Positions 14,349 to 37,976 of a stretch of 41,788 nucleotides of DNA are shown here, piece by piece. Made by a program: the position numbers and the translations under genes. Numbering within the stretch: position 1 is the stretch's first letter; the number at the start of each line of letters is the position of its first letter. The notes under the pieces were generated by a model that saw only the letters and a program-made list of their open reading frames with translations, searched no databases and was not told the origin of the DNA. Source of the stretch: Dehalococcoidia bacterium (GTDB lineage: Bacteria > Chloroflexota > Dehalococcoidia > Bin125); the NCBI GenBank assembly GCA_022822855.1, contig JAJDYG010000010.1, positions 1 through 41,788 on the forward strand, written 5' to 3'.

Positions 14349-14394
14349 TCCGCGGGACGCATAATCTGACCCCACGTTGAAGGGGTTAGATTCA

Positions 14395-15393
14395 GTGCGT
14401 AGATTCATTGCTTCGACGTTCCTCCCGACGCTTGTCATCGCGCTCGTCATGGCGCTGGCCTGGCTCGGTTCAGCTTGCGCAGACGAGGCCGAGAGTGACG
14501 ACCTGCTCGTCGTCACGACCGTTGCACCGCTGCGCAGCATCATCGAAGAGGTCGGCGGCGACCGCATCAGCGTCATCGCGCTCGTGCCCGAGGGCACCAA
14601 CAGCCACACCTTCGACCCGCCGCCCTCGGCTGTCGGCGAGATCGAGAAGGCCGACCTGATCATCATCAACGGTCTCAACCTCGAACTTCCGACGCTCGAG
14701 CTGGCGGAAGCCAACGCTTCAGATGACACGCCGATCGTCCTGCTCGGAAACCTCGCCGTCTCCCCCGATGAGTACGTCTTCGACTTCTCCTTCCCTGAAG
14801 AAGGTGGCAACCCGAATCCACACCTCTGGACTGCGCCGCACCTGGCCGTCGAGTACGCAGAGATCGTGCGCGGCGAACTCAGCAAGGTCGACCCCGACGG
14901 CGCTGACTACTACGCCAGCAATGCCGAGCGGCTGATCGCCCGACTCTGGGACTTGGACGACGCGATTGCCGACGTGACCTCTACGATCCCAGAAGCGCAC
15001 CGCAAACTCATCACCTATCACGACTCCTTCCCCTACTTCGCTCCCCGCTACGGATTGGAGATCATCGGTGCGATCCAGCCCTCCGACTTCTCCGAGCCGT
15101 CGCCGCGCGAAGTCGCCGACCTGATCGAGCAGATCCGCGACGCTGGCGTGCCCGCCATCTTCGGCTCCGAGGTCTTCCCTTCGGAAGTGCTCGAGACCAT
15201 TGCCCAAGAAGCCGGAGCGGTGCAGGTTTCAACCCTGTCGGATGATGATCTGCCCGGCGAGCCGGGCGATCCCGAGAACACGCTGGTCGGCATGATGGTG
15301 GAGAATGTGCAAACGATGGTCACCGTTCTCGGCGGCGATGCGTCCGCCCTGGACGGATTCGAGACAGGCAGCACGTGGCAACCGTCGGAGTAG
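14395..15393 (+). CDS. Zinc-type ABC transporter substrate-binding lipoprotein (ZnuA-like)
   Basis: A 332-residue cluster A-I metal-binding protein. I place the start at GTG 14395 because AAGGGG lies nine bases upstream and the signal peptide then begins MRRFIAS. A TTG at 14377 is in frame but has no ribosome site. The signal sequence ends in an imperfect lipobox with Cys28. Metal ligands are visible in NSHTFDPPP, NPHLWTAPH and ITYHDSFPYF, with FGSEVF as fourth. A His at the third site favours Zn over Mn, where that site is usually Glu. There is no His-rich loop in this protein; the acidic/His tail is on the ATPase instead. It is the first gene of the three-gene importer. Confidence 0.88.
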   Translation: MRRFIASTFLPTLVIALVMALAWLGSACADEAESDDLLVVTTVAPLRSIIEEVGGDRISVIALVPEGTNSHTFDPPPSAVGEIEKADLIIINGLNLELPTLELAEANASDDTPIVLLGNLAVSPDEYVFDFSFPEEGGNPNPHLWTAPHLAVEYAEIVRGELSKVDPDGADYYASNAERLIARLWDLDDAIADVTSTIPEAHRKLITYHDSFPYFAPRYGLEIIGAIQPSDFSEPSPREVADLIEQIRDAGVPAIFGSEVFPSEVLETIAQEAGAVQVSTLSDDDLPGEPGDPENTLVGMMVENVQTMVTVLGGDASALDGFETGSTWQPSE

Positions 15394-16247
15394 ATGCGCT
15401 GGTTGAACTGGACGGCGTCGCGCTGGGCTATGAGGGCGTCGTCGCCTTGCGCGATGTCGAGGTGACCATTGCCCCCGGCGAGCTGATCGGCATCGTCGGT
15501 CCCAGCGGGTCCGGCAAGACGACCCTGTTGCGCTCGTTGCTTGGTGAGCCAGAACTGTATGCGGGGACGGCCAGGGTCGCCGACAACACGCGCGTGGGCT
15601 ACGTTCCCCAGGTCGAAACCGTTGACTGGAACTTCCCGATCACCGTCGAGCAGGTCGCCATGCTCGGCAGTTGGCGAACCCGACGCTGGCTGCCCTGGAC
15701 CAGCCGAGCCGAGCGCAGCCGCGCCCGCGTCGTGCTCTCCCAGCTCGGCATCGCCGACCTCGCGGATCGCCCGATTCGCGCGCTCTCTGGAGGCCAGCAG
15801 CAGCGCACGTTCCTCGCCCGAGCGTTGGTCCGCTCGCCGGACCTGTTGCTGCTCGACGAGCCCACCTCAGGCGTCGACATCAAGACCCGGCACGAGATTC
15901 TCCACCAATTGGCTAGCCTCAACACGGCCGGCGTGACCGTCGTGCTGACCACGCACGACCTCAACGGCGTTGCCTCCCACCTGCCCCGCCTGATCGCGCT
16001 GGGTGAGCAGACCGTGCTCGCCGACGGTCCGCCCTCGGAGGTCTTACAGCCCGACATCCTCGAACGCGCCTACGGCCAACCCATGCTCGTCGTCCGGCGC
16101 GGACACGAGACCTACGTGCTACCGGTGCCGGAGGAAGCGCCGGGCGCGCACCCAGACGCCGAACACGACCACGACGACGATGATGATCACGACCACGCCG
16201 AACTGAGCGTGGTCGACGCCCCCGGAGTGGGCGCCGACCATGCTTGA
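15375..16247 (+). CDS. Zinc-type ABC transporter ATPase (ZnuC-like) with His/Asp tail
   Basis: A 290-residue ATPase with Walker A GPSGSGKTT, Q-loop YVPQ, signature LSGGQQQRT, Walker B LLLLDEPTSG and switch histidine in LTTHDL. It starts at GTG 15375, overlapping the binding-protein gene by 19 bases, and ends eight bases inside the permease gene. The last 30 residues carry a run of Asp and His (HDHDDDDDHDHAE), unusual on the ATP-binding subunit and probably a cytoplasmic metal-binding or sensing tail. Zn specificity is inferred from the binding protein and this tail. Confidence 0.9.
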   Translation: MATVGVDALVELDGVALGYEGVVALRDVEVTIAPGELIGIVGPSGSGKTTLLRSLLGEPELYAGTARVADNTRVGYVPQVETVDWNFPITVEQVAMLGSWRTRRWLPWTSRAERSRARVVLSQLGIADLADRPIRALSGGQQQRTFLARALVRSPDLLLLDEPTSGVDIKTRHEILHQLASLNTAGVTVVLTTHDLNGVASHLPRLIALGEQTVLADGPPSEVLQPDILERAYGQPMLVVRRGHETYVLPVPEEAPGAHPDAEHDHDDDDDHDHAELSVVDAPGVGADHA

Positions 16248-17109
16248 GCCCTTCGAGTTCGGCTTCATGCAACGGGCGATGATCGCAGCCACGCTGGTCG
16301 GCGGTGTGACCGCCGCGGTCGGCGTCTTCGTCATCCTCCGACGCCTCGCCTACATCGGGCACGGCCTGGCCCACAGCATCTTCGGCGGAGCGGTCGTCTC
16401 ATTCACCATCGGGTTCAACTTCTTCGTCGGAGCAAGCCTCTGGGGAGCATTCTCCGTCTTTCTGATCAACCAGGCGGCGCGGCGCAGACAGATCGGCGGC
16501 GACGCGGCGATCGGCATCGTCACCACGGCCGCATTCGCGATCGGCATCGCCGTGATTTCGAGAGCCCGCAGTTTCACTCGCGACTTTGAGGCTGCCCTGT
16601 TTGGAGAGATTCTCGGCATCACCAATCAGGACCTGTACGTCACGACGGGGATGATCGTGTTGATCGCGCTGGTGCTGTTCGCGCTGTGGAAGCCGCTTGT
16701 ATTCATCACCTTCGACCACGATGTCGCAACCTCGTACGGCATCTCCGTGCGCTGGGTCGAGGCGATCTTCTCGCTCGCCCTGGCCGCCACCGTCGTGGCC
16801 GCCTTGCAGGTGCTCGGCGTCACTCTAATCGCGGCTGCTCTGGTCATTCCGCCCGTTGTCGCCCGGATGATGACGGATTCGTTCCCCCGGCTCTTCGTGA
16901 TCGCCGTCGTGATCGGCGCGGTCACCGGATTCCTCGGGGTCTATGTGTCCTGGTTTGTCGACGTTTCCTCAGGCGCGACGGTGGTCCTGGTCCAGGCCGC
17001 CGTCTTCGCCCTGACACTCGGCTGGGGGGTGATCGAGTCGCGACGCGGTTTCAGCGCCACTCGTCGCGCCGAGCGGCTGGCCGGACTGGAGCGGTCGCTC
17101 AACGACTAA
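16240..17109 (+). CDS. Zinc/manganese-type ABC transporter permease (ZnuB/MntB-like)
   Basis: A 289-residue polytopic inner-membrane protein of the ABC-3 family with about eight hydrophobic segments. Family landmarks are FMQRAMIAATLVGGVTAAVGVFVILRRLAYIGHGLAHSIFGG near the N-terminus and VLGVTLIAAALVIPPVVARMMTDSF in the second half. The start overlaps the ATPase gene by eight bases, so expression is coupled. It completes a binding protein / ATPase / permease importer. Confidence 0.92.
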   Translation: MLEPFEFGFMQRAMIAATLVGGVTAAVGVFVILRRLAYIGHGLAHSIFGGAVVSFTIGFNFFVGASLWGAFSVFLINQAARRRQIGGDAAIGIVTTAAFAIGIAVISRARSFTRDFEAALFGEILGITNQDLYVTTGMIVLIALVLFALWKPLVFITFDHDVATSYGISVRWVEAIFSLALAATVVAALQVLGVTLIAAALVIPPVVARMMTDSFPRLFVIAVVIGAVTGFLGVYVSWFVDVSSGATVVLVQAAVFALTLGWGVIESRRGFSATRRAERLAGLERSLND

Positions 17110-25486: not shown

Positions 25487-25503
25487 CGGGCTGAGGCCGC
25501 TTG

Positions 25504-26274
25504 ATGGGCGCGCTGCTCGAGGTCAGCGAGCTGGACAAACACTTCGGCGGTCTGCGCGCCTGTGATCGGGCGAGCTTCCAGATCGAGGAGGGCAGGATCG
25601 CGGGGATGATCGGTCCGAATGGGGCGGGCAAGACCACGGCGTTCAACTGCGTCGCGGGGTTCCTCAAGCCAGACGGCGGCACGGTTCGCTTCGCGGGCGA
25701 AGACGTCACCGGTCTGCCGCCGCACCGGATGTTCGACCGCGGCCTGGTGCGGACCTTCCAGATCCCGCAGGGGCTGGAGACGATGACGGTGCTCGAGAAC
25801 CTGATGCTGGCCGGCGAGCAGCAGTCGGGCGAGGCGGTCTGGCGCAACTGGCTGCTGCCCGGCCGGGTGGGCCGGGAAGAGCGACAACTGGAGGCTCGCG
25901 CGCACGAGGTGCTGGAACAGACGCAGCTCGGACACCAGGCGTACATCCGCGCGGGGGCGCTGTCGGGCGGGCAGCGCAAGCTGTTGGAGCTGGCTCGGGC
26001 GCTGATGGCGGAGCCGAAGATGATCCTGCTGGACGAGCCGGGGGCCGGCGTCAATCCGGCCCTGATCCAGCGGCTGGTCGGGCACATCCGTGAGTTGAGC
26101 GAGCGGCTTGGACTGACCTTCCTGATCATTGAGCACAACCTTGATCTGATCCGCCAGCTCTGCGATCCGGTCGTGGTCATGGCCCAGGGACGGGTGCTCG
26201 ATGTCGGCACGCCCGGCGATGTGCTGTCGAATCCCGAGGTCCAGGCCGCCTATCTCACCGGACAACGGACGTGA
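25504..26274 (+). CDS. livG: Branched-chain amino-acid-type ABC transporter ATPase (LivG-like)
   Basis: A 256-residue ATPase. Walker A GPNGAGKTT (37-45), LivG-specific RTFQIPQGL, signature LSGGQRKLLELAR, Walker B MILLDEPGAGVNP and switch IIEHNLD are all present. I use ATG 25504 rather than the TTG immediately before it. It forms one operon with livF, livH and livM. The substrate class (branched-chain amino acids, amides, urea or aromatic compounds) cannot be told from the ATPases. Confidence 0.93.
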   Translation: MGALLEVSELDKHFGGLRACDRASFQIEEGRIAGMIGPNGAGKTTAFNCVAGFLKPDGGTVRFAGEDVTGLPPHRMFDRGLVRTFQIPQGLETMTVLENLMLAGEQQSGEAVWRNWLLPGRVGREERQLEARAHEVLEQTQLGHQAYIRAGALSGGQRKLLELARALMAEPKMILLDEPGAGVNPALIQRLVGHIRELSERLGLTFLIIEHNLDLIRQLCDPVVVMAQGRVLDVGTPGDVLSNPEVQAAYLTGQRT

Positions 26275-26284
26275 TGGGCACAGC

Positions 26285-27046
26285 ATGAGCGAACGAGATC
26301 CCCTGTTCCGGGTGGAAGGGTTCAGCGGCGGGTACGTCGACGGGATCGACATCATCCACGACATCGAGCTGGATCTCTATCGAGACGAGATCCTGACGAT
26401 TATCGGTCCGAATGGGGCGGGCAAGTCGACGCTGCTCAAGGCGATCGTCGGCGCGCTGCCGTTCGAACGTGGGCGGCGCTCGTTCCAGGGTGAGGATGTC
26501 AGCGGCTGGTCGACGCCTCGGATGATCGAGGCCGGGATCGGCTACGTGCCGCAGGTCGACAACGTGTTCACCTCCCTCTCGATCCGCGAGAACCTCGAGA
26601 TGGGCGGCTACATGCGGCGCAGCGGTCTGCAGGAGCGGATCGACGAGGTGCTGGCGATGTTTCCCGACCTCGAACATCGTCCGGGCGAACGTGCCAGCCG
26701 GCTCTCGGGCGGGCAGCGGCAGATGCTGGCGATGGCGCGCGCGCTGATGCTGGATCCGGTGATGTTGTGTCTGGACGAGCCGACGGCGGCTCTCGCGCCT
26801 GCGACGCGGGGCGAACTGTTCGCTCGGATTTACCGGATTCACATGGCGGGCGTGGGCATCCTGATGGTTGAACAGAACGCGACGGAGGCGCTGGTCTGGT
26901 CGGACCGGGGCGTGGTGATGGTCGACGGGGAGAAGGCGCTCGAGGGCAGCGGCACGGAGATGCTAACCAGCCCCGAGGTCGGGCGCGCCTTCCTCGGCCA
27001 GGCTGAGGGCGAGGGGTTCGCGATCGAAGAAGGGATGACGTCATAG
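26285..27046 (+). CDS. livF: Branched-chain amino-acid-type ABC transporter ATPase (LivF-like)
   Basis: A 253-residue ATPase starting at ATG 26285, ten bases after livG. Walker A GPNGAGKST, YVPQVDNVFTSLSIRENLEMG (typical of LivF), signature LSGGQRQMLAMAR, Walker B MLCLDEPTAALAP and switch MVEQN are present. The second ATPase half pairs with LivG. Its stop TAG (27044-27046) overlaps the only plausible initiation site of livH. Confidence 0.93.
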   Translation: MSERDPLFRVEGFSGGYVDGIDIIHDIELDLYRDEILTIIGPNGAGKSTLLKAIVGALPFERGRRSFQGEDVSGWSTPRMIEAGIGYVPQVDNVFTSLSIRENLEMGGYMRRSGLQERIDEVLAMFPDLEHRPGERASRLSGGQRQMLAMARALMLDPVMLCLDEPTAALAPATRGELFARIYRIHMAGVGILMVEQNATEALVWSDRGVVMVDGEKALEGSGTEMLTSPEVGRAFLGQAEGEGFAIEEGMTS

Positions 27047-27957
27047 AAATCGCGCAACTGGTCACGGTCGGGATCATCGTCGGCTCGATCATCGCGCTGG
27101 GCGCGATGGGTCTGACCCTGATCTTTGGCGTGCTCGGGATCGCCGACTTCGCGCACGGCGACAAGATGGGCTGGGGCATGTTCCTGGCCTTTTTCATCGT
27201 CTCGTCGGAGGGCGCCAACCTGGGCTTCGTCGGCGGACGCTTCGGTTCGCTGTCGTTCGGCTGGGGGCTGGTTGTCGGACTGCTCGTGGCGATGATCGGC
27301 GTCGCGCTGATTTCGGTGATCCTGGAGCGGCTCGTCTTCCGTCGGCTGCGGATCACGGGCGGCGGGTTCTTCGTCTTTGCGATCGCCTCGCTGGGCATGT
27401 CGATCATGCTGCGCGCCGTGATTCAACTGATCTGGGGGCCGTCGAACTTCCGCTACAACCCCGGCATCCACCCGGCGATCGAGATCTTGGGCGGGATCAA
27501 AGTGAAGCCGGACCAGTTCTTCATCGTCGGGATCACGGTGCTGGCCGCGGTGCTGCTCTACTGGCTGCTCTATCGGACGCGGTTCGGCAAGGCGATGCGA
27601 GCGACATCCGACAATCCGGCGCTGGCGGAGGCGTCGGGAATCGACACCGACAGGATCAGAACCGGCACCTGGATCATCGCGGGAGTTCTCGGCGCGCTGG
27701 CGGGCGTGATGCTGGGCCTGCAGGCCGAGGTCCGGTTCGACGCGGGGTTCCGCCTGCTGCTGCCCCTGTTCGCGGCCGTGATCCTGGGCGGGATCGGCAA
27801 TCCCTGGGGCGCGTTGATCGGCGGTCTCGGCGTGGGTATCGCGCAGGAGGTCTCGACCGAATGGATCAATACCGGACTCAAGCCGGGGATCCCGTTCGTG
27901 ATCGTGATCGTGGTCTTGCTGTTGCGGCCGCGGGGCCTGTTCGGGCAAGTCCGGTGA
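27043..27957 (+). CDS. livH: Branched-chain amino-acid-type ABC permease (LivH-like), non-canonical start
   Basis: An inner-membrane permease of about 304 residues with eight or so helices. The N-terminal helix IAQLVTVGIIVGSIIALGAMG followed by LGIADFAHGD is the conserved LivH start, and GNPWGALIGGLGVGIAQE is the cytoplasmic loop region. The first in-frame ATG (27106) falls inside the first helix, and no GTG or TTG exists between it and the upstream stop at 27004. The best candidate is ATA at 27043, seven bases after AAGGGA and overlapping the livF stop as ATAG. CTG 27058 is a weaker option. The rest of the gene is intact. Confidence 0.85.
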   Translation: MEIAQLVTVGIIVGSIIALGAMGLTLIFGVLGIADFAHGDKMGWGMFLAFFIVSSEGANLGFVGGRFGSLSFGWGLVVGLLVAMIGVALISVILERLVFRRLRITGGGFFVFAIASLGMSIMLRAVIQLIWGPSNFRYNPGIHPAIEILGGIKVKPDQFFIVGITVLAAVLLYWLLYRTRFGKAMRATSDNPALAEASGIDTDRIRTGTWIIAGVLGALAGVMLGLQAEVRFDAGFRLLLPLFAAVILGGIGNPWGALIGGLGVGIAQEVSTEWINTGLKPGIPFVIVIVVLLLRPRGLFGQVR

Positions 27958-27969
27958 GGGCGCGTTGAG

Positions 27970-29019
27970 ATGGAACAGCTCATCGTGACGCTGGTCACGT
28001 TCGACGGCGCGGTCAACTGGACGGTCGGTTTTCTGACCACGGTGGCGATCTTCGCGATTCTCGCGCTGGCGCTGAACATCCAGTGGAGCGTCGGGATTCT
28101 CAACTTCGGCGTCGCCGCGTTCTTCATGGTCGGGGCGTACGTATCGGCGGTGCTGACTCTGCCGCCGCCCGAAGGGCTCGAGTCCTATGTGGCGGGCTGG
28201 GGGATTCCGATTCCGGTCGGCTGGTTGTTCGCGATGGTGGCCGGAGCGGTGCTGGCGATCCTGCTCGGGATCCCGACTCTGCGTCTGCGCGACGACTTCC
28301 TCGCGATCGCGACGATCGGCGTGGCCGCCATCCTGCGCAGCATCGCCAACTCCGTGGAAGGTCTGGTCAATCGCAGCCGGGGGCTCAACGGCGTCGACGG
28401 GTTTCTCGAGGATCAGGTGCAGGGCGGCGACTACCGCTGGGTTGAGCTGGCCATCGCGCTGGTCGTGCTGATGGCGGTCTACTGGCTGGTGTCGAGGGCG
28501 TCGTCGTCGCCCTGGGGCCGCGCCTTACGCGCGATCCGCGACAACGAGGACACGGCCAAGGCATCGGGCAAGAACACCGTGAAGTTCCGCATGGGCGCGT
28601 TCATCCTGGGCGCGATGCTGATGGGTCTGGCGGGAGCGATCTATGCGCACCGCAGCGGTACGATCTCGCCGCTGACCTTCTCCGACCTGCTGGGCACGTT
28701 CTTCGTCTGGACGATGCTGATTGTCGGCGGCAGCGGCAATCATCGGGGCGCGGTACTGGGTGCGGTGGTCGTCGGATTCTTCTGGTTTGGCACGCCGCTG
28801 ATCCAGGAAAGCCTGCCCGACTGGCTGGGCAGCCGAGTCTTCCAGGTCAGGCAGTTGTTGATCGGGTTGTTGATCGTGGTCTTCCTGCTCTGGCGGCCGC
28901 AGGGTCTGCTGGCCGAGCGCGATCGGGTCAGCCGCTTCGTCAGCCAGGGACCGGACGATCGGCCCGGCGGCGACTCCGGCTCGATCTGGAGACGAGTCCG
29001 CAGCGCGGTCTCGCGTTGA
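27970..29019 (+). CDS. livM: Branched-chain amino-acid-type ABC permease (LivM-like)
   Basis: A 349-residue polytopic permease, second membrane subunit. Landmarks are ALALNIQWSVGILNFGVAAFF near the N-terminus, GIPTLRLRDDFLAIATIG, NRSRGLNGVDGF, SPWGRALRAIRDNEDTAKASGKN and the closing IGLLIVVFLLWRPQGLL. All are typical of LivM. It starts 12 bp after livH and ends only 21 bp before the stop of the convergent binding-protein gene, so the transporter core and its probable receptors are on facing transcripts. Confidence 0.93.
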   Translation: MEQLIVTLVTFDGAVNWTVGFLTTVAIFAILALALNIQWSVGILNFGVAAFFMVGAYVSAVLTLPPPEGLESYVAGWGIPIPVGWLFAMVAGAVLAILLGIPTLRLRDDFLAIATIGVAAILRSIANSVEGLVNRSRGLNGVDGFLEDQVQGGDYRWVELAIALVVLMAVYWLVSRASSSPWGRALRAIRDNEDTAKASGKNTVKFRMGAFILGAMLMGLAGAIYAHRSGTISPLTFSDLLGTFFVWTMLIVGGSGNHRGAVLGAVVVGFFWFGTPLIQESLPDWLGSRVFQVRQLLIGLLIVVFLLWRPQGLLAERDRVSRFVSQGPDDRPGGDSGSIWRRVRSAVSR

Positions 29020-29040: not shown

Positions 29041-30528
29041 CTAGGGTCCGAAGTCGACCGGGATCCGACGGACGATCTCGATCTCGCCATCGGCGGTAAA
29101 GCGCCAGATGCCGATGGTGAAGCGGGCGATGTCGCCGTTGTCGTCCCAGTCGAGGCTGGAAACCGCGCCCTGGTAGTCGATGTCCTGTCCGCCGGCCAAG
29201 GCCTCGAGCGCCTGCGACAGCGCGGCTGCGCCGATGAGTCGCCCCTCGCCGTCGCTGATCTGACGAAGCTGGTCTCGAATCGCGGGGCCGTCGGTTGATT
29301 GGGCGGCCTGCGCCGCCAACGCCAGCGCGATCGTCGCGTCGTAGACGCCGGGGACGAACGTCACATTGGCGCGCGGCGGCTCGCCCCACATGCGCTCGTA
29401 ACTCCGCTTGAAGAAGCAGGTGGAGTCCGTCTCGGCGCCGAACGTCGGGGACGTACCGATCAGGCGTTGAGCGATCTCCGGGCCCAGGGCGTCGAACAGA
29501 CTCCGGCTCTGACCGCAATCAGCGAGCAAGAAGTCGTCGAAGAGATCGCCTGCCAGTGATTCAGAGATGATCGTGGCGCTCTCCTTCCAACAGCCCAGCA
29601 CGATCAGCCCGCTTGCGCCGCCGGCGGCGACCTGCTCGATCTCGCTGAGGAACGTCACGCCGGCCACGTGATCGATGGGCAGGGCCAGGACGTCACCGTC
29701 AAACTCGCGAACGACTTCGTCGGCCAGGCCGCGACCGTAGGCGTCGTCGCGATAGAGGACGCCGATGCGGTCATGACCTCGGTCCTTGGCCAACTGGGCG
29801 AGCACGAGGCCTTGGCCGGCCGCGTCGGAGGGGGTGGTGCGGAAGAACCAATCGCCGGGATCGGCGGTGGTCAGATCGGGGGATGTCGCCGATGGGCTGA
29901 TCGTCGGAATCTGAAGCGGGTTGGAGAGATGTTCGGAGATGACCAGGGAGCTGGAGCTGAAGGTCGGTCCGACGAAGGCATGCACGCCTTCCTCTTCGAT
30001 GAGGCGCCTGGCCGAGGCGACGATGAACTCCTGATCGAGATTGAAGTCGGCGATGAGGCCGATCACCGGGCGGCCGAAGACTCCTCCCGCCGCATTGAGC
30101 TGGGCAATGGCGAGCTTGAACGCCTGCCGGCGTTCGGCCGCCGCGCCGTGAACCGTCTGCAGCAGCGCGATCTTGAGCGGACCGGGCCCGGTCCGGGTTT
30201 CAGCGAGGGTGATTGGACCGCTGTGATACCAGCGGTCGACATCGGCGTCGGGGAGCAAGAAGCGGGCGTCGGGGGTGATGTACTCACCCCACTCGGAGCC
30301 CGCGCGCTGTTGCAGTGCGACCTCGGTACGGCCGTCGGCCAGTGATCGAGCGGCGATCCGAAGCTCTTCGCTCGACTCGGCCGAGCGGGCGGGCGAGTCG
30401 TCGCCGGAGGCCAGCCGCCAGAGGACGAGGGAAGCCAGGCTGATGGCGACAAGCATCAGCACGGCGACTCCGCCGACTCCAGCAAGGCCGAACTTGGCGG
30501 TGGCGGCCATCTGTCGGGGAGGATTCAC
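29041..30528 (-). CDS. Branched-chain-type substrate-binding protein, membrane-anchored variant
   Basis: A 495-residue periplasmic-binding-protein type I (LivJ-like) protein, longer than the usual 400. Unlike its three neighbours it has no lipobox. Residues about 18-38 form a non-cleaved-looking membrane helix, followed by about 80 extra residues before the binding domain starts near GPLKIALLQTVHG. Family segments include QLNAAGGVFGRPV, VHAFVGPTFSSSSLVISE, FFRTTPSDAAGQGLVLAQLAKDRG and YDATIALALAAQAAQ. It is the last gene of the leftward receptor cluster and faces livM. It could be a tethered receptor or a sensor rather than a transporter partner. Confidence 0.85.
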   Translation of the reverse strand: MNPPRQMAATAKFGLAGVGGVAVLMLVAISLASLVLWRLASGDDSPARSAESSEELRIAARSLADGRTEVALQQRAGSEWGEYITPDARFLLPDADVDRWYHSGPITLAETRTGPGPLKIALLQTVHGAAAERRQAFKLAIAQLNAAGGVFGRPVIGLIADFNLDQEFIVASARRLIEEEGVHAFVGPTFSSSSLVISEHLSNPLQIPTISPSATSPDLTTADPGDWFFRTTPSDAAGQGLVLAQLAKDRGHDRIGVLYRDDAYGRGLADEVVREFDGDVLALPIDHVAGVTFLSEIEQVAAGGASGLIVLGCWKESATIISESLAGDLFDDFLLADCGQSRSLFDALGPEIAQRLIGTSPTFGAETDSTCFFKRSYERMWGEPPRANVTFVPGVYDATIALALAAQAAQSTDGPAIRDQLRQISDGEGRLIGAAALSQALEALAGGQDIDYQGAVSSLDWDDNGDIARFTIGIWRFTADGEIEIVRRIPVDFGP

Positions 30529-30576
30529 AGCGAGGCTCCAAGCCAGCCCCGGGGAGTTGTCCGAGGCAGAGCGAGC

Positions 30577-31830
30577 TTACTCCGCCTCGTAGCTGACGAT
30601 CTCCACGTCTTCGAAGTTGCCGTCCCTGGTGTAGCGCCAGATGCTGCTGTAGCCGGAGGCCAGATCGCCATGCTTGTCCCACTCCATCGCTGTGGCGGCG
30701 CCGACATAATCGATGTCTGCGCCGTCGGCGAGAGTTGCCAGTCCGTGGGCGACGGAATCTGGGCTGGCGATCACTTCGTCTCCCGGCGCGGACGCGATGC
30801 GGCGCAGCTGATCGCGGATCGCCGCGCCGTTGGCCGAGCCGGCGGCCTGGGCCGCGAGGGCCAGGGCGATGGTTGCGTCGTAGGTCTCCTTGACGTACGG
30901 GATCGCGGGCGGGACGCCGTATTCGTCGATGAACGCATCCAGCCAGGCCTCGGCCGACCGGCTGTCGGTCGCCGAAGCCGGGCCGGCGCCGTACATGCCG
31001 GCCAGGTGCTCAGCACCGATCGTTTCGATGAGCTGCAGGCTCTGCGCGCCGTTGCTGAAGACGAACTGGTCGTAGAAGCCCTGCTCAATCGCCTCGCGGA
31101 TCATGATTTCCGCCTCGGGCACGAAAGTGACGACCATGAGCGCCTGAGCGCCGTCGGCGACGGACTGCTGCAGCTCTGCGATGTAGGTCGTCTGCGCCGG
31201 ATCGATCGCCATGCTGACGATCTCGCCTTCCCAGGCGTTCTCGAAGGCGGTCGCGTAGCCCTGCCCCCAGGCGTCGTTGCGGTAGATCAGGCCGACGTTG
31301 TCGAAGCCTCGGTCGGCGGCGACTCGGGCCATGATCGGTCCCTGTGCGGCGTCGGAAAGGGTCGAGCGGAAGAGGAAATCGTCGTCCTCGGCGAGGGTCA
31401 ACTGGGGAGAGGTCGCGGAGGGACTGACCGTCGGTACGGCGGCCGCAGCCGTGATGTCGGTGACCGCCAGGGTGATGCTGCTGGCGGTGCAGCAGACGAA
31501 GGCGTGGATCTTCTCGACCTCGACCAGGCGCCGCGCCTCCTCGGTTGCGATCGTGGGATCCAGCGTGGAATCGGTGACGAACGGCTCGACCGGTTGGCCC
31601 CAGACGCCGCCGGCCGCGTTGATGTGCTTGATCGCCAGGTCGAATCCCTTGCGCATCTCGTTCCCGTACTCGGCGAGGCCGCCGGTGAAGTCGAGCATCA
31701 GGCCGATCTTGAAGGCTTCGGACGGAGCCTCGCTCGATGCCTGTTGCTGTTCGTGATCGGAGCAAGCGGCGGCGAACAAGGTCAAAACCAAGCCGATGAT
31801 CAGCGAGAACGCGAAGGTCGGACGATTCAT
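30577..31830 (-). CDS. Branched-chain-type substrate-binding lipoprotein
   Basis: A 417-residue LivJ-like lipoprotein with signal peptide and lipobox LFAAAC (Cys23), then a short Gln/Ser linker. Domain landmarks are FKIGLMLDFTGGLAEYGNEM, HINAAGGVWGQPVEP, SPSATSPQLTLAEDDDFLFRSTLSDAAQGPI, VGLIYRNDAWGQGYA and ETYDATIALALAAQAAG. It is a paralogue of both flanking genes. It starts ATG with GGAAGGAG upstream. The ligand is unknown; the cluster position next to livGFHM makes that importer the likely partner. Confidence 0.92.
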   Translation of the reverse strand: MNRPTFAFSLIIGLVLTLFAAACSDHEQQQASSEAPSEAFKIGLMLDFTGGLAEYGNEMRKGFDLAIKHINAAGGVWGQPVEPFVTDSTLDPTIATEEARRLVEVEKIHAFVCCTASSITLAVTDITAAAAVPTVSPSATSPQLTLAEDDDFLFRSTLSDAAQGPIMARVAADRGFDNVGLIYRNDAWGQGYATAFENAWEGEIVSMAIDPAQTTYIAELQQSVADGAQALMVVTFVPEAEIMIREAIEQGFYDQFVFSNGAQSLQLIETIGAEHLAGMYGAGPASATDSRSAEAWLDAFIDEYGVPPAIPYVKETYDATIALALAAQAAGSANGAAIRDQLRRIASAPGDEVIASPDSVAHGLATLADGADIDYVGAATAMEWDKHGDLASGYSSIWRYTRDGNFEDVEIVSYEAE

Positions 31831-31957
31831 TGCAGCGGCTCCTTCCGTGGGGTTGAAGTTGGTTCGGAAGGCTCAGGCTCTCGGTCTGCTCAGACGCGCG
31901 GGGCCGGTACACCAATGCTCACCGGGCTGCGACCTGCCAGCGAGTCCTGATCGGTTC

Positions 31958-33313
31958 TCACTGTTCGTAGGGGATGACGCCGGTGTCTTCGATACCGCCG
32001 TCGGCGGTGAAGCGCCAGATGCCGACGTAGCCTCGGGCCAGATCCCCGTTCTCGTCCCATTCGAGTGACTGAGCGGCGCCCTCGTAGTCGATGTCCTCGC
32101 CGTTGCGGGCGGCCTCGAGGCCGAGGCGGATGCTGCCGATGTCGGCCAGCACGAGCTGGCCCGGCGCGCCGCCGATCCGGCGCAGTTGGTCGCGGATCAC
32201 CGCTCCGTCGGTGGACTGCGCGGCCTCGGCGGCCAGCGCGAAGGCGAGCGCAGCGTCGTAGGCCTGCTTGGTGTAGGGGTACGCGTAGGGTCGCTCGTAC
32301 TCGTCGATGAAGGCGGCCTCCCAGAGCAGGGCGGACTCGGTGCCCGGCGCGGTACCGGGGGCGGTGCCGTGCATGTCGGCGAGGTAGTCTGCGCCGATGT
32401 CCTCGATGAGGCTGAAGTTGCGGCTGGTCGGGCCGAAGACAAACTTGTCGTAGAGGTCGTTCTCGATCGATTCACGCAGGATGATCGTGCCTTCGGGCAC
32501 GTAGGCGAGCATGACCAAAGCTTGCGGCTGGTTCTGAAGCGACTGCTGGATCTCGCTGAGGTAGGAGGCCTGCTGCGGGGCGACGGCGACCTTGACGACC
32601 TGACCGCCCCAGCTCTCAACGAACGCCTCGGCGAACGAGTCGGCGATTCCCTGCCCCCAGGCGTCGTCGCGATAGATCACGCCGACGTTCGTGTAGCCCT
32701 GCTCGTTGACCAGTTGGGCCAGCGCCGGACCCTGGACCTTGTCGTTCAGCGTTGCTCGGAAGAGGAAATCACTGTCGGCGGCGACTGCCAGTTGGGGTGA
32801 GGACGATGCCGGGGAGATCTGCGGAATCCCGGCCGGGCCGGTGATGCTCTCGGCGACTGCGATGGTGTTGGTGCTCGAATGCGCGCCGACGATCACGTGC
32901 GCGCCCTCGATATCGATCATCCGCCGGGCCTCTTCGACGGCAATCGTGGGATCGGTGTTGGTATCGCCGATCAAGAATTCGACGGGCTGGCCGAAGACGC
33001 CGCCGGCCTCGTTGATGTGCTTGATCGCGAGCAGAAACCCGTCGCGCATCTCGACACCGATCTCGGCCAATCCGCCGGTCAGGTCGCCGAGGAAGGCGAT
33101 CTTGAGCGGACCCGGCGTCGCGTCCGGTTGCGTCTGCGCGGATTGTTGTTGCGCTTGCCCTTGCTCGGCCTGCTGCTGGGTACTGGCCGTCGCAGCCTGC
33201 TCGGTCGGCTCGTCGCCGTTCGAGCAGGCTGCCAACAGCAAGGCCGCAGCGGTCGCCGCCAGGACGACGAGAGTCGCCGGGCGGAGCATGAGGCCGGTTG
33301 CGTGACGGCTCAC
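31958..33313 (-). CDS. Branched-chain-type substrate-binding lipoprotein
   Basis: A 451-residue LivJ-like lipoprotein: signal peptide with lipobox LLLAAC (Cys30), a Gln/Thr-rich linker (about 31-66), then the type I binding fold starting PLKIAFLGDLTGGLAEIGVEM. HINEAGGVFGQPVEFLIGD, FLFRATLNDKVQGPALAQL, VGVIYRDDAWGQGIADSF and KQAYDAALAFALAAEAAQ match the neighbours. The region that lines the ligand cleft in the family (VHIV/SSTNTIAVAESI, SPASSSPQL) differs from the other paralogues, consistent with a different ligand. It lies 27 bp after the fused gene, in the same transcription unit. Confidence 0.92.
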   Translation of the reverse strand: MSRHATGLMLRPATLVVLAATAAALLLAACSNGDEPTEQAATASTQQQAEQGQAQQQSAQTQPDATPGPLKIAFLGDLTGGLAEIGVEMRDGFLLAIKHINEAGGVFGQPVEFLIGDTNTDPTIAVEEARRMIDIEGAHVIVGAHSSTNTIAVAESITGPAGIPQISPASSSPQLAVAADSDFLFRATLNDKVQGPALAQLVNEQGYTNVGVIYRDDAWGQGIADSFAEAFVESWGGQVVKVAVAPQQASYLSEIQQSLQNQPQALVMLAYVPEGTIILRESIENDLYDKFVFGPTSRNFSLIEDIGADYLADMHGTAPGTAPGTESALLWEAAFIDEYERPYAYPYTKQAYDAALAFALAAEAAQSTDGAVIRDQLRRIGGAPGQLVLADIGSIRLGLEAARNGEDIDYEGAAQSLEWDENGDLARGYVGIWRFTADGGIEDTGVIPYEQ

Positions 33314-33340
33314 TTGATAGCTCAGCGGGCGACCGGCCGG

Positions 33341-35908
33341 TTACTCGGCGAGGTCGAAGGCGGTCACGCTGATCTCGACGATCTCGCCGCCCTCGTAGGC
33401 CCAGACACCGATGTATCCGGAGGTGATGTCGCCGTTCTCGTCCCAGTCGAGCGTGGTCGCTGCACCTTCGAGGTCAACCTCCCAGCCCTGGGCAACGGCC
33501 GCCAGCGCGGCGTCGACGCCCTCGCCGCCGATTGCGTATGGGTCACCCGGCGGTCCGGCGACCGTGCGCAGGCTGTCGCGGATCGCGGCCGGATCGACCG
33601 AGCCGGCGGCCTGCGCGGCCACGCCGATCGCCACGGCCGCGTCGTAGGCTTCCGCGACGAAGGGCAGCGGGCTCAGTTCGCCGTACTCGGCGATGTAAGA
33701 CTCGTTGAAGAGCAGCAAGGCGGGCGAGCCCGGGCCCGGCGAGGGCGCGGTGCCTCTCATGCCTTCGAGGTACTCGCCGCCGATGGCATCGACCAACTCC
33801 TGACTCTTGCTGCCGTCGACGAAGAGGAACTCGTCGAACAGACCTTGCTCAAGCGCCTCGCGGATGAAGATCTCAGCTTCCTGCGGGAACGCGATCACGA
33901 TGAGCACTTCGGCGTCGTTGTCGGCCGCCTGCTGCAGCTCGGCCAGGTAGGTCGCCTGTCGCGGCTCGATCGAGACGACGTTGGCGGCGCCGCCCCAGGC
34001 GTCGTTGAAGGCTTCGGCCAGGCCCTGGCCGTAGGGGTCGTTGAGGAAGATCACGCCGACGTTGCTGTAGCCCTGATCGGCGGCGAGCTGCGCCAGAACC
34101 GGGCCCTGAGCGGCGTCGGAGACGGTGCTGCGGAAGAGGAAGTCGTTGTCCTCGGCGATGGTCAACTGCGGCGAGGTCGCTGACGGAGAGATGACCAGCA
34201 CGCCCGCGTCGGCCGCGACCGACTCCACGACGGCCAGCGTGATCGAGGAGGCCAGCGGCCCGACGATCGCGTGGACGCCTTCGACCTCGATCAGTCGCCG
34301 AGTCTCCTCGGTCGCCTGGGTCGGATCGAGAGCGGTGTCGCCAATCACAAGTTGGACCGGGTGGCCAAGCACGCCGCCGGCGTCGTTGAGCTGCTTGATC
34401 GCCAGATCAACACCGGTCTGGATGCTCGGACCGAACTCGGCCAGCGGGCCGGAGAAGTCGGCCAGCAGTCCGATCTTGAGCGGCTCGTCCGAGACGATCG
34501 GCTCTGCCTGGTCGTCCGCCGACGCGCTGGGCGTGGCCACGATCGGCCCGCCGCTGAGATCGAAGGCGGTCACGCTGACCTCTTCGATCGTCCCCTCGGC
34601 GTACTGCCAGACGCCGATGAAACCGGTCGCGATGTCGCCCGCGGCGTCGAAGTCGACCGAGGTGGATGCGCCGGCGAAGTCGACATCGTCTCTCGCGCGG
34701 ATCGCCGCGAGAGCGTCGGCGACGCCGCTGGCGCCGGCCTGGAACGCGCTGCCCGGCGGGCCCGCGACCGTGCGCAGGCTGTCGCGGATGGCGGCTCGGT
34801 CGTCCTGGCCCGCGTGTTCGGCGGCGAGCGCTACAACGACGGCTGCGTCGTAAGTCTGGGCGACGAACGGTTCGTCCGCGCCCTCCCCGAACTCGGCAGC
34901 GAAGTCTGCTCGGTAGTTGCGCAACGCCTCGGTTTCGGGGCCCGAGACCGGCGCCGTGCCCTGCATGCCGTTCAGGTACTGGCCGCCGATCGCGTCAATC
35001 AGGTCCTGGCTCTTGTTGCCGTCGGTGAAGATGAAGTGGTCGAACAGCCCGTTCTCCAGCGACTCGCGGATGAAGACTTCCGACTCGGGCGGGAAGGCCA
35101 CTGCGATCAACGCCTCCATGCCGCCCTCCGCCGCTTGCTGGAGCTCGGCGAGGTATGAAGTGCGGCCGACCTCGATCGCGACGAAGTTGGCGCTGCCGCC
35201 CCACGAGGCCTCGAAGGCGTCGGCCAGTCCCTGTCCCCAGGCGTCGTTGCGGAACAGGACGCCAACGCGGCTGAGTCCTTGATCGGCCGCCAGTTGGGCC
35301 AGCACCGGACCTTGCGCGGCGTCGGACGGTGAACTGCGGAAGAGGAAGTCGTTGTCCTCCGCGATCGTGAGCTGGGGCGAGGTTGCAGAAGGAGAAACGA
35401 CCAGTACGCCGGCATCGGCAGCGACGGACTCGACCACGGCCAGGGTGATCGAGGACGCCAGCGGCCCGACGATCGCGTGCACGCCCTCGACCTCAATCAG
35501 TCGGCGAGCTTCCTCGGTCGCCTGTGTCGGGTCGAGAGCGGTGTCGCCGAAGACGATCTCAACCGGCTGACCCCAGACGCCGCCCGCGGCGTTGACGTGG
35601 CGGATCGCCAGTTCGAAGCCGCGCTGCATCGAGAGGCCGTACTCGGCCAGTCCGCCCGAGAAGTCGGCCAGGAAGGCAATCTTGAACGGACCATCCACGG
35701 CCGGGGCCGCGGGCTGATCCTGTTGGTCCTGCTGCTGGCGCGCCGGAGCGGCGGTCGTCGTGCTTTGCTGTTCATCCTGCTGCTGTTCCGCGACAGCTTG
35801 TTGCTGCTGCGACTGTTGTTGCTCATCGTCGCTACAGGCGGCGAACAGGCCGACCGCCAGTGCCACCAGCAGGCTCAGGCCGACAATCTTGAGAAGCGAT
35901 GAATTCAC
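33341..35908 (-). CDS. Tandem-fused branched-chain-type substrate-binding lipoprotein (two binding domains)
   Basis: An 855-residue lipoprotein, about twice the family length. Signal peptide with lipobox LFAAC (Cys25), Gln-rich linker (about 30-65), binding domain 1 (about 75-450), linker with PSASADDQAEP, and binding domain 2 (about 477-853). The domains are in register at an offset of 402 residues (1206 bp). Long stretches such as RLIEVEGVHAIVGPLASS and SPSATSPQLTIAEDNDFLFR are shared exactly or nearly so, indicating recent internal duplication or gene conversion. No signal peptide or stop lies between the halves. It is the first gene of the four-gene receptor cluster, preceded by a nested dyad at 35931-35971. 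Confidence 0.9.
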   Translation of the reverse strand: MNSSLLKIVGLSLLVALAVGLFAACSDDEQQQSQQQQAVAEQQQDEQQSTTTAAPARQQQDQQDQPAAPAVDGPFKIAFLADFSGGLAEYGLSMQRGFELAIRHVNAAGGVWGQPVEIVFGDTALDPTQATEEARRLIEVEGVHAIVGPLASSITLAVVESVAADAGVLVVSPSATSPQLTIAEDNDFLFRSSPSDAAQGPVLAQLAADQGLSRVGVLFRNDAWGQGLADAFEASWGGSANFVAIEVGRTSYLAELQQAAEGGMEALIAVAFPPESEVFIRESLENGLFDHFIFTDGNKSQDLIDAIGGQYLNGMQGTAPVSGPETEALRNYRADFAAEFGEGADEPFVAQTYDAAVVVALAAEHAGQDDRAAIRDSLRTVAGPPGSAFQAGASGVADALAAIRARDDVDFAGASTSVDFDAAGDIATGFIGVWQYAEGTIEEVSVTAFDLSGGPIVATPSASADDQAEPIVSDEPLKIGLLADFSGPLAEFGPSIQTGVDLAIKQLNDAGGVLGHPVQLVIGDTALDPTQATEETRRLIEVEGVHAIVGPLASSITLAVVESVAADAGVLVISPSATSPQLTIAEDNDFLFRSTVSDAAQGPVLAQLAADQGYSNVGVIFLNDPYGQGLAEAFNDAWGGAANVVSIEPRQATYLAELQQAADNDAEVLIVIAFPQEAEIFIREALEQGLFDEFLFVDGSKSQELVDAIGGEYLEGMRGTAPSPGPGSPALLLFNESYIAEYGELSPLPFVAEAYDAAVAIGVAAQAAGSVDPAAIRDSLRTVAGPPGDPYAIGGEGVDAALAAVAQGWEVDLEGAATTLDWDENGDITSGYIGVWAYEGGEIVEISVTAFDLAE

Positions 35909-36059: not shown

Positions 36060-37007
36060 TCAGCTGTCGAACGCGCTCAGAATCTCGGCATCGAACTGCT
36101 CGAAGAGCCGAGGATTGTTCGGGATCGATTCGAAGACGAATCCCTGGATCCCGACCGCCTCGTACTGCTCGAACACCCTGATCAGGTGCTCGGCCGGACC
36201 GATCGGCAGATGTTGCACTTCGTCCTCCGGCATGCCTTCGCCGTGGATCTGTCGCAGCCGGTCGATCTTGTGCTGTTCGTAGACCAGCGCCGGTCGCATC
36301 ACGGTTGTCAAAGTGATCTCCGAGGGATCGCGGCCCGCTTCGGCGCAGTGCCGGTGAATCACCTCGATCAGTCGAGCGACCTCTTCCGGCGTACCGCGGA
36401 TATTGCAGATGTCGCCATGCCGCGCCAGCGTCCGCAGCGTCCGGCGCTCGCCGTTGCCGCCGATCATGATCTGAACGAACCCGCCGGGATGATCGGGATG
36501 CACTCGGGGAGCGAAGGGAGCGTTGTTGAGTTGGTAGTGCTCGCCCTCGTAGTCGACCCTCCCCTCGGAGTGGAGCAACGCGCGGATCAACTCCGTCGCC
36601 TCCTCCAGGCGGTCTGACCGCTCTTTGATCGAGGGGAAGTTCCAACCGTAGAAGCCATGCTCTCGCGCATGCCCTGCTGCGCCGAGTCCCAGAATCGCCC
36701 GCCCACCCGTGTTGTGATCCAACGTTGCGGTCATCTTCGCGACCAGGCTGGGACTCCGATACGTCACCGCCGAGACCAGCGTGCCCAGCATCAGATTCGA
36801 GGTCGCTTCGCCGAGCGCGGCCAGCGTCATCCAGCCCTCGAGCGAATCGCCCGTCTCGTCCATGAAATCCAGCGGCGGGACGAAGTGGTCATAGGTCCAG
36901 GCCGAATGCCAGCGCGTCGCGTCCATCGTCTGCGCCACGTCGCGCATCAGCGAGAAATCGGTCTGGTTGCCGGGGATCTGCGCCCCGAAGGTGAGTCGCA
37001 TGGTCAT
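36060..37007 (-). CDS. LLM-class (F420-type) oxidoreductase, tandem copy A
   Basis: A 315-residue luciferase-like protein, co-linear without gaps with the next gene (about 79% identical by my by-eye count). Shared signatures include AWTYDHFVPP (about 36-45), LVSAVTYRSP, IMIGGNGERRTLRTLARHGDICN and PIGPAEHLI. In the cofactor-proximal segment this copy reads GLGAAGHAREHGF where copy B and most family members have GLGxxWHxxEH, so the Trp and the following Glu are lost. It lies downstream of copy B by 21 bp in one transcription unit and ends 151 bp before the receptor cluster on the same strand. Confidence 0.88.
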   Translation of the reverse strand: MTMRLTFGAQIPGNQTDFSLMRDVAQTMDATRWHSAWTYDHFVPPLDFMDETGDSLEGWMTLAALGEATSNLMLGTLVSAVTYRSPSLVAKMTATLDHNTGGRAILGLGAAGHAREHGFYGWNFPSIKERSDRLEEATELIRALLHSEGRVDYEGEHYQLNNAPFAPRVHPDHPGGFVQIMIGGNGERRTLRTLARHGDICNIRGTPEEVARLIEVIHRHCAEAGRDPSEITLTTVMRPALVYEQHKIDRLRQIHGEGMPEDEVQHLPIGPAEHLIRVFEQYEAVGIQGFVFESIPNNPRLFEQFDAEILSAFDS

Positions 37008-37028
37008 CGTCGCATGCCGTTCCTTGCG

Positions 37029-37976
37029 TCAGTCGTCGAACACGCTCAGCACCAGCTCATCGAACTGCTCATACAGCCGCGGATTGTTCGGGATCGATTC
37101 AAACACGAACCCGCTGATCCCGATCGCCTCGTACTCCTGGAACAGGCTGATCAGATGCTCGGCCGGACCGATCGGCAGACGGGTTCGCTGCTCGTCCGAC
37201 ATGCCCTCGCCGTGGACCTCGCGCAGCCGGTCGATCTTGTGCTGCTCATCCACGAGCGCCGGTCGCATGACCGTGGTCAGGGTGATCTCCGAGGGATCGC
37301 GGCCCGCGTCTCGGCAATGTCCGTGGATCACGTCGATCATCTCCGCCACCTGCTCCGGTGTCCCGCGCACGTTGCAGATGTCCCCGTAGCGGCCCAGCGT
37401 GCGCAGCGTTCGCTTCGCCCCGTTGCCGCCGATCATGATCTCGATCGCCCCGCCCGGATGGTCGGGATGCACGCGCGGCGCAAACGGCGCGTGATCGAGC
37501 CGGTAGTACTTGCCTTCGAACTGCACCGGTCCGTCGGAGCGGAACAACGCCCGAATCAGCGCCGTCGCCTCCTCCAGCCGGTCCGATCGTTCCCGCAGCT
37601 CCGGGAAATCCCAGCCGTAGGCGGCGTGCTCGCGCTCGTGCCAGGCCGCGCCCAGCCCAAGGATCGCCCGCCCGCCGGTGTTGTGATCCATGGTGGCGGT
37701 CATCTTGGCCAGCAGGCCGGGGTTGCGATAGGTCACACCCGATACCAGCGTGCCCAGCATCAGGGTGCTCGTCGCCTCTCCCAGCGCGGCCAGCGTCATC
37801 CAGCCCTCGAGCGAGTCCTGCGTCTCGTCCATGAAGACCAGCGGAGGCACAAAGTGGTCATACGTCCAGGCCGACGACCAGCGCGTCGCGTCCATGGTCT
37901 GCGCCACATCGCGCATCAGCGAGAAATCGGTCGAGTTGCCGGGAATCTGCGCCCCGAACGTCATCCGCATGGTCAT
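37029..37976 (-). CDS. LLM-class (F420-type) oxidoreductase, tandem copy B
   Basis: A 315-residue paralogue of copy A that keeps the canonical GLGAAWHEREHAAYGW segment. AWTYDHFVPP, VSGVTYRNPGLLAKM, IMIGGNGAKRTLRTLGRYGDICN and SGFVFESIPNNPRL are shared. It is the upstream gene of the pair. Its 5' region contains a palindromic repeat (38001-38040). The substrate is unknown. Most probably copy B carries the ancestral activity and copy A has diverged. Confidence 0.9.
   Translation of the reverse strand: MTMRMTFGAQIPGNSTDFSLMRDVAQTMDATRWSSAWTYDHFVPPLVFMDETQDSLEGWMTLAALGEATSTLMLGTLVSGVTYRNPGLLAKMTATMDHNTGGRAILGLGAAWHEREHAAYGWDFPELRERSDRLEEATALIRALFRSDGPVQFEGKYYRLDHAPFAPRVHPDHPGGAIEIMIGGNGAKRTLRTLGRYGDICNVRGTPEQVAEMIDVIHGHCRDAGRDPSEITLTTVMRPALVDEQHKIDRLREVHGEGMSDEQRTRLPIGPAEHLISLFQEYEAIGISGFVFESIPNNPRLYEQFDELVLSVFDD

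What the first reader, a model, noticed from the sequence alone, without database searches (positions are those of the whole stretch)
29041..35908. Five binding domains in four adjacent genes facing one LivGFHM core
Four consecutive leftward genes encode branched-chain-type receptors (one double), directly opposite a single rightward livGFHM operon with 21 bp between the facing stops. Each receptor has a different linker and cleft region, so this may be a multi-ligand uptake or sensing hub built by local duplication. Established: one Liv core can use several receptors. Inferred: all five use this core.
Basis: partly seen in the sequence, partly recalled or inferred. Interest (0 to 1): 0.7.

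Follow-up and report, generated by a model that had tools for sequence, protein, structure and literature searches.

The report
Five receptor domains, one importer core
In this Chloroflexota genome the only branched-chain-type (Liv) importer core that our searches found faces four receptor genes with five binding domains, the only such domains found in the genome; they likely arose by local duplication and probably let one pump take up several kinds of small molecules, two of the receptors lacking the acidic residue that is predicted to grip an amino group.

Summary
In detail: four leftward genes with five Peripla_BP_6 domains face livGFHM, 21 bp between the stops. Of 14 other same-genus genomes, 13 keep the facing core. 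Relatives outside the genus mostly face it with one receptor; the genus has 2 to 5 genes (3 to 6 domains), with a two-domain receptor in all 14 (one on a separate contig). Trees place these receptors in one clade away from receptors of second Liv systems, which supports local duplication. New here: the residue that holds the ligand's ammonium in LivJ (Glu226) is Asp in all 26 outside relatives read, in 28/28 R4 domains and 7/8 R1, but Asn in R2, Pro in R3 and Ala in a paralogue the window lacks. So the receptors split into two predicted ligand classes. The double receptor's N-domain has two types that do not follow the core tree. Ligands, and use of the core by every receptor, are inferred. 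Known kind, new variant.

The parts
25501..26274 (+). livG-type ATPase
   Evidence: best NCBIfam hit LivG, 217.9 bits, below its cut-off of 362
26285..27046 (+). livF-type ATPase (start read at 26285)
27049..27957 (+). livH-type permease; the Pfam match begins at 27070, upstream of the first ATG/GTG/TTG (27106), so the start codon is unclear
27970..29019 (+). livM-type permease
29041..30528 (-). R1 receptor: hydrophobic helix, 60-aa module, one Peripla_BP_6 domain; acid present (Asp337, codon 29518-29520)
30187..30381 (-). R1's module without a Pfam match, dispersed through the genome
30577..31830 (-). R2 receptor, predicted lipoprotein; Asn260 (31051-31053) at the LivJ Glu226 position
31958..33313 (-). 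R3 receptor, predicted lipoprotein; Pro295 (32429-32431) at the LivJ Glu226 position, Ser at the Thr102 position; present in all 14 genus loci
33341..35908 (-). R4 double receptor, predicted lipoprotein (855 aa) with two Peripla_BP_6 domains on one anchor; Asp296 (35021-35023) and Asp698 (33815-33817) at the Glu226 position
36060..37007 (-). LLM1, F420-type luciferase-like oxidoreductase, same strand, 151 bp upstream of R4
37029..37976 (-). LLM2, second such oxidoreductase

Best explanation
The locus is one Liv-type ABC importer core (livGFHM) facing four genes for five Peripla_BP_6 receptor domains, and these receptors likely arose by local duplication of one ancestral amino-acid receptor and would all dock on this one core, widening what it imports. 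Steps: (1) shown: the core and the five domains are the only ones of their kind found in the genome. (2) shown: the facing order prevails among the Chloroflexota relatives of this core examined, mostly with one receptor, and these receptors nearly always keep the LivJ-like ligand triad Ser79/Thr102/acid226. (3) inferred from trees: in this genus that receptor multiplied into classes R1, R2, R3, R5 (absent here) and the double R4, held in one order. (4) inferred: R4N, R4C and R1, which keep the acid, bind amino acids; R2, R3 and R5, which keep Ser79 but lack the ammonium acid, bind ligands without a free alpha-ammonium, such as 2-oxo or hydroxy acids. (5) inferred: lipid or membrane anchors hold the receptors at the membrane, where they take turns at LivHM, the double R4 giving two binding sites per anchor.
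For: Five of 5 PF13458 and 5 of 5 PF01094 matches in the genome lie here. The LivM query matches only LivM and LivH in this genome; of 3 PF02653 matches the third sits beside ORFs that read like a sugar-type system (by eye, no family scan). In 7 of 14 genus genomes with the locus (G000, G004, G007, G008, G009, G011, G014) the number of PF13458 matches equals that at the locus (G008 with R5 split over two contigs), and the same 7 show only two LivM-query matches (my comparison by count, one search's list was cut). Six second Liv systems opened carry their own co-directional receptor (L132-L137). Facing receptor: 30 of 35 Chloroflexota/Thermomicrobiota loci against 3 of 40 others. One receptor clade: SH-aLRT 100; R2/R3/R5 together 96/94. 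Column 226: Asp in 28/28 R4 domains, 7/8 R1 and 26/26 receptors of outside relatives that were read; Asn 3/3 R2, Ala 8/8 R5, Pro 14/14 R3. The roles of Ser79, Thr102 and Glu226 are from passages of PMC13103812, a simulation study.
Against: No binding, transport or expression data. The genome is about 95% complete in 42 contigs, so another core could be missing. The core passes no Liv cut-off in NCBIfam, and LivH's best model is the urea permease UrtB (130.0 of 250.3 bits), so the core's own substrate class is open. No co-regulation signal: 0 promoter-like sites. R1 differs in anchor and its orthologues diverge most (51-73% identity to window R1 against 83-91% for R3), so it may have another job. 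Lack of the acid need not mean loss of amino-acid binding: another residue may hold the amine; 7 receptors of other transporters from other phyla also lack it (5 Gly, 1 Ala, 1 Asn), ligands unknown. A docking list for LivJ in PMC6983066 (passages) names Ser79 and Thr102 but not Glu226. One R1 orthologue (L057) has Asn here.
Confidence: 0.66

Rival explanations
1. The receptors are redundant or affinity variants that all bind the same few amino acids, and the array mainly raises receptor dose.
For: Ser79 is kept in all genus classes and Thr102 in all but R3 and single members of R1 and R5. R4N type b and R4C share the commonest residue at every contact column read, and R4N and R4C of the window are nearly identical in part of the first lobe.
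Against: R2, R3 and R5 lack the acid, each with its own residue across its class (3/3, 14/14, 8/8); window domain identities are only 40-52% outside R4.
Confidence: 0.2
2. Some receptors, above all R1 with its membrane helix and extra module, are not transport receptors but sensors or surface proteins that ride in the cluster.
For: R1 has a hydrophobic helix and a dispersed module instead of a lipobox, and is the most divergent class among orthologues. Six other own-genome proteins pair the same module with other domains.
Against: No MCP domain found in the genome; no signalling domain in R1; R1 keeps the acid in 7/8 and Ser79 in 8/8 and holds the slot next to livM in the 8 of 14 genus loci that have it.
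Confidence: 0.12
3. The core is a urea- or amide-type (Urt-like) or other HAAT importer rather than an amino-acid importer, and the receptors follow that substrate class.
For: livH scores best with the UrtB model and livF nearly as well with UrtE as with LivF (173.7 against 175.7 bits), all below cut-off.
Against: livG and livM score best with Liv models; the best PDB sequence matches of R2, R3 and R4 are entries named as amino-acid or branched-chain amino-acid binding proteins; acid226 is kept in R1 and R4.
Confidence: 0.08
4. Each receptor belongs to a different transporter elsewhere and the neighbourhood is incidental.
For: Some relatives have further Liv systems.
Against: None was found in this genome; six such systems opened in relatives carry their own receptor, which falls outside the local clade.
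Confidence: 0.04

Closest known systems
E. coli LivJ/LivK with LivHMGF (hydrophobic amino acid uptake, HAAT; recalled)
   Same: One core served by more than one type-I receptor; same Pfam families of permease, ATPase and receptor.
   Different: Five domains here, in an opposite-strand array, one double and one with a membrane helix; R2 and R3 lack the Glu226 equivalent.
P. aeruginosa DppBCDF with DppA1-A5 (PMC4206461, abstract and passages seen)
   Same: Five receptors for one ABC core, four of them near the core.
   Different: Other transporter and receptor family; no double receptor described in the passages seen.
GlnPQ tandem substrate-binding domains (PMC8025302, abstract and passages seen)
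   Same: Two binding domains in tandem joined by a short linker (14 residues there, 20 in the window).
   Different: GlnPQ domains are linked to the permease and belong to another structural cluster (F-IV); R4 is a free-standing predicted lipoprotein of the LivJ type.
LivJ-type Peripla_BP_6 receptors of known structure (3td9, 4gnr, 3ip5, 1z15)
   Different: Acid at position 226 absent in R2 and R3.

Membership tests
Liv/HAAT ABC importer | Two ABC_tran ATPases and two BPD_transp_2 permeases in one gene row | tested here: met
Liv/HAAT ABC importer | Type-I Peripla_BP_6 receptor with the core | tested here: met
E. coli-type LivGFHM as defined by NCBIfam | Passes the curated cut-off of the LivG/LivF/LivH/LivM models | tested here: not met
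   217.9/362, 175.7/441, 96.7/379, 111.2/366; livH's best model is UrtB at 130.0/250.3. So a Liv-type relative, not named as an orthologue
Liv/HAAT ABC importer | Measured transport of hydrophobic amino acids | not testable with these tools
   no assay
LivJ-type alpha-amino-acid receptor | Ser79, Thr102 and acid226 all present: R4N, R4C, R1 of the window | tested here: met
   (R1 orthologues: acid 7/8, Thr102 7/8)
LivJ-type alpha-amino-acid receptor | Ser79, Thr102 and acid226 all present: R2, R3 | tested here: not met
   pairwise alignments
GlnPQ-like tandem receptor | Two binding domains in one chain | tested here: met
GlnPQ-like tandem receptor | Tandem fused to the permease | tested here: not met
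   R4 is a separate gene with no BPD_transp domain
Multi-receptor single-core system (DppA1-A5 kind) | No other core of that type found in the genome | tested here: met
   genome about 95% complete
Multi-receptor single-core system (DppA1-A5 kind) | Each receptor shown to work through the core | not testable with these tools
   needs genetics or reconstitution

The most novel reading that the evidence does not exclude
A swappable receptor magazine for one pump: a Liv core in sponge-type Chloroflexota keeps its permease nearly fixed while it gains, loses and recombines receptor cassettes in fixed slots, even exchanging single domains of a double receptor between species, and one branch of cassettes lost the ammonium-binding acid once and turned an amino-acid importer into an importer of non-amino organic acids as well.
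Probability: 0.35. Interest if true: 0.68.

Novelty: new variant of a known kind. Interest (0 to 1): 0.52.

Why it matters
It gives a natural series (1 to 6 receptor domains on one conserved core) in which to ask how one ABC importer serves many receptors, and how receptor specificity changes: one column, LivJ-226, separates classes that should bind amino acids from classes that should not. It also offers testable predictions of what these bacteria, probably sponge-associated, eat; the published view (abstract and passages of PMC6306507) stresses amino-acid use and enrichment of luciferase-family oxidoreductases in SAR202 sponge symbionts, and genes of that family sit directly upstream of the receptors here.

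Tried and rejected
Separate transporters for the receptors: rejected for this genome. Chemotaxis or sensing hub: no MCP match. Promoters and terminators: 0 promoter-like sites; 14 terminator-like sites against 6.2 expected, none at the livM/R1 junction; nothing concluded. Recent gene conversion between R4N and R4C: the best DNA repeat between them is only 80% identical, so not claimed. Simple vertical descent of the R4 N-domain types: rejected on the core tree, AU p 4.7e-91 with at least 3 changes. The grouping was chosen after seeing the domain tree, the core tree is poorly resolved (3 of 11 forks starred), and G003 was not in that tree, so I read it as discordance, not as a dated transfer.

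Known precedent for the ligand switch: PDB titles show an Anabaena receptor with a 3-methyl-2-oxo acid in wild type (4obb) and valine in the N280D mutant (4nv3). I could not get the residue alignment (searches did not print it), so whether N280 is position 226 stays open; by interpolation of the aligned ranges it lies within a few residues. The VIA second look covered mainly R4C. R4's domain arrangement is not fixed by the model (pTM 0.49). Papers: five searches listed no paper whose title or abstract describes this array; the library is partial and I opened only passages.

Dropped or special rows: 3 of 103 domains (fragments of L080 and L083) left out of the tree; one search used 81 rows; one search read G008's R5 from a 307-residue fragment, and its near-relative group holds one receptor (L074, 2015) that lies upstream of livG and does not face livM. 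R4C identities cover 11 orthologues; G007 and G008 have a more diverged C-domain (G007 75% DNA). The facing count missed L073, where the overlap limit of my script was exceeded although a receptor faces livM; L070 and L079 end soon after livM; L087 shows no receptor; L091 has a co-directional one. L131 had no LivM frame and was not counted. Three more regions (L138-L140) show a weakly matching receptor on the same strand as a livH-livM pair; they were too partial for the tree.

Full report
Observation. Searches confirm four leftward genes at 29041-35908 with five Peripla_BP_6 domains, facing livGFHM (25501-29019), 21 bp between the stops. I call them R1 (29041-30528), R2 (30577-31830), R3 (31958-33313) and R4 (33341-35908, double). 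Gaps between the leftward receptor genes are 48, 127 and 27 bp; two luciferase-like F420-type oxidoreductase genes lie upstream on the same strand, 151 bp from R4 and 21 bp apart.

Do they share the core? The window is a whole contig of a 2.87 Mb, 42-contig genome, 95% complete. PF13458 finds 5 domains and PF01094 the same 5, all here. PF02653 finds LivH, LivM and one more permease that lies among ORFs that read like a sugar-type system (by eye); the LivM query matches only LivM and LivH in this genome. So no other Liv permease was found for these receptors. Across the genus, 13 of 14 other genomes hold the LivM orthologue at 89-96% identity; G013 does not. By count, in 7 of the 14 genomes with the locus (window included) the PF13458 matches equal those at the locus, and exactly those 7 show only two matches to the LivM query (one search's list of places was cut, and G008's R5 is split over two contigs). 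Six further Liv systems opened in other genomes each have their own co-directional receptor. This makes use of one core by all receptors the likeliest reading, but it is not shown.

What is the core? All four genes match Pfam families of Liv-type importers, but none reaches an NCBIfam cut-off of a Liv or Urt model: livG and livM score best with Liv models, livF almost equally with LivF and UrtE, and livH best with the urea permease UrtB. 'Liv-type' is therefore a family label, not a tested substrate.

How old is the arrangement? A scan for LivM relatives gave 76 loci. By script, 33 of 75 with a readable LivM face a receptor: 30 of 35 in Chloroflexota/Thermomicrobiota, 3 of 40 elsewhere (one of them, L082, without a phylum label), where 32 of 40 have a co-directional receptor. 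Of the 35, 13 are of the window's genus (2-5 facing genes, with a double where the contig reaches; G008's double is on another contig, L141). Of the other 22, 14 face with one gene, 3 with two (L067, L074, L083) and 5 counted as none (see Tried and rejected). The nearest loci are titled Chloroflexota or Dehalococcoidia MAGs; their contig lengths equal those of the genus genomes. Several isolate prefixes suggest sponge samples, which is recall, not a call.

Local duplication. In a tree of 100 domains, the receptors of the genus and of its nearest relatives form one clade (77 rows, SH-aLRT 100), while receptors of second Liv systems of the same genus lie far outside. A second tree (81 rows, bootstrap/SH-aLRT) gives classes R3 (100/100), R2 (100/100), R1 (100/99), R5 (100/100) and R2+R3+R5 together (96/94). 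Over the 14 genus loci: R3 14, R4 14, R1 8, R2 3, R5 8; the window lacks R5. Reading outward from livM, every locus fits the order R1, R2, R3, R5, R4 (listed). DNA between window and 12 relatives runs at 77-89% for the core genes (G003's contig lacks livG and most of livF). Domain identity of R1 to its 7 orthologues is 51-73%, of R3 to its 13 83-91%.

Ligand site. In LivJ, passages of PMC13103812, a simulation study, state that the carboxylate is bonded to Ser79 and Thr102 and the ammonium to Glu226, with Tyr202 also bonded; a docking list in PMC6983066 (passages) has Ser79, Thr102 and Tyr202 but not Glu226. Mapped through the alignment to 1z15, column 226 is Asp in R4N 14/14, R4C 14/14 and R1 7/8, but Asn in R2 3/3, Ala in R5 8/8 and Pro in R3 14/14. 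Outside the genus it is Asp in 26 of 26 receptors that were read from the facing-type loci and their neighbours on the tree: 12 near, 7 deep, 4 of L067, and L084, L089, L091. Ser79 is kept in every genus class; Thr102 is Ser in R3 14/14. Separate pairwise alignments agree: R2 Asn against Asp of 4gnr and 3td9, R3 Pro against Asp of 3td9, R1 Asp against Asp of 4gnr. On the 81-row tree the fewest acid/non-acid changes is 2. The simplest reading is one loss of the acid at the base of R2/R3/R5, and one in a single R1. Against over-reading: 7 receptors from other phyla also lack the acid (5 Gly, 1 Ala, 1 Asn), and their ligands are unknown; the second Liv systems of the genus have Glu 6/6.

Double receptor. 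R4's lipobox Cys and both acid positions are invariant in an alignment of the window's R4 with 46 of the 120 homologues listed. Of those 120, 117 are at least 785 aa long (only proteins of 0.55-1.75 times the query's length were candidates). Models: R4 mean pLDDT 84.2, pTM 0.49; R1 85.3, pTM 0.75; both match LivJ-like structures. The R4 N-domain has two types: a (window, G003, G004, G007, G008, G011) and b (8 others); window against type b is 66-70% identical, while the C-domain of 11 orthologues is 83-94% and that of G007 and G008 more diverged. Against its nearest core relative G002 the window's R4 DNA is 75% in N and 88% in C; against G004 and G011 84% in both. Type a is not one clade on the core tree. 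This suggests domain exchange or conversion within R4, of unknown date.

R1 module. The 60 residues between R1's hydrophobic helix and its domain have no Pfam match, are shared by R1 orthologues and a receptor of another genus, and give 18 matches in the genome and 7-44 in each of the 14 other genus genomes (19 of 61 genomes searched; counts may be low where candidates were capped). Six own-genome proteins opened show it after a hydrophobic stretch, mostly before regions that read like sugar-type receptors, one like a Cu/Zn superoxide dismutase (by eye). R1 thus looks like a Liv receptor mounted on a lineage-specific surface stalk.

Known kinds. One core with several receptors is known: LivJ/LivK (recalled) and DppA1-A5 (PMC4206461, abstract and passages). 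Tandem domains are known in GlnPQ (PMC8025302, abstract and passages). PMC6306507 (abstract and passages) reports amino-acid use and enrichment of luciferase-family oxidoreductases in SAR202 sponge symbionts. The combination here, a facing array with a free double receptor and a class-specific lack of the ammonium acid, was not described in the listings of five searches. Verdict: real and conserved, a new variant of a known kind; the ligand-class prediction is its most testable part.

Noticed in passing
window 30187-30381 (-): A 60-aa module without a Pfam match, with 18 matches in this genome and 7-44 in each of 14 same-genus genomes; in the six own-genome proteins opened it follows a hydrophobic stretch and precedes varied domains.
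   Followed up: partly
window 34506-35700 (R4 N-domain): Two types of R4 N-domain in the genus that do not follow the tree of the transporter core; the window differs from its nearest core relative G002 in this domain (75% DNA) but not in the C-domain (88%).
   Followed up: partly
window 36060-37976 (-): Two F420-type LLM oxidoreductases (78 and 83% identical in two DNA repeats) directly upstream of R4; one or two such genes are seen there in all 14 genus genomes.
   Followed up: partly
window 27049-27106 (+): livH similarity and open frame extend upstream of the first ATG/GTG/TTG (27106); the codon at 27049 is ATC, and 10 of 13 genus relatives show the same 283-aa reading, so an unusual start codon or a shorter protein is possible.
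   Followed up: partly
L148, L149, L150, L151 (own genome, contigs C40, C18, C36): Four own-genome proteins join the R1 module to regions that read like sugar-type receptors; such receptors may be another expanded set (by eye).
   Followed up: no
window 14377-17109 (+): Three consecutive ORFs read like a ZnuABC/MntABC-type metal importer (binding protein, ATPase, permease); read by eye, no family scan.
   Followed up: no
L067:5340-6848 (-): In a relative of another genus a receptor with the R1-type module lies upstream of livG instead of facing livM, besides a facing double receptor.
   Followed up: no
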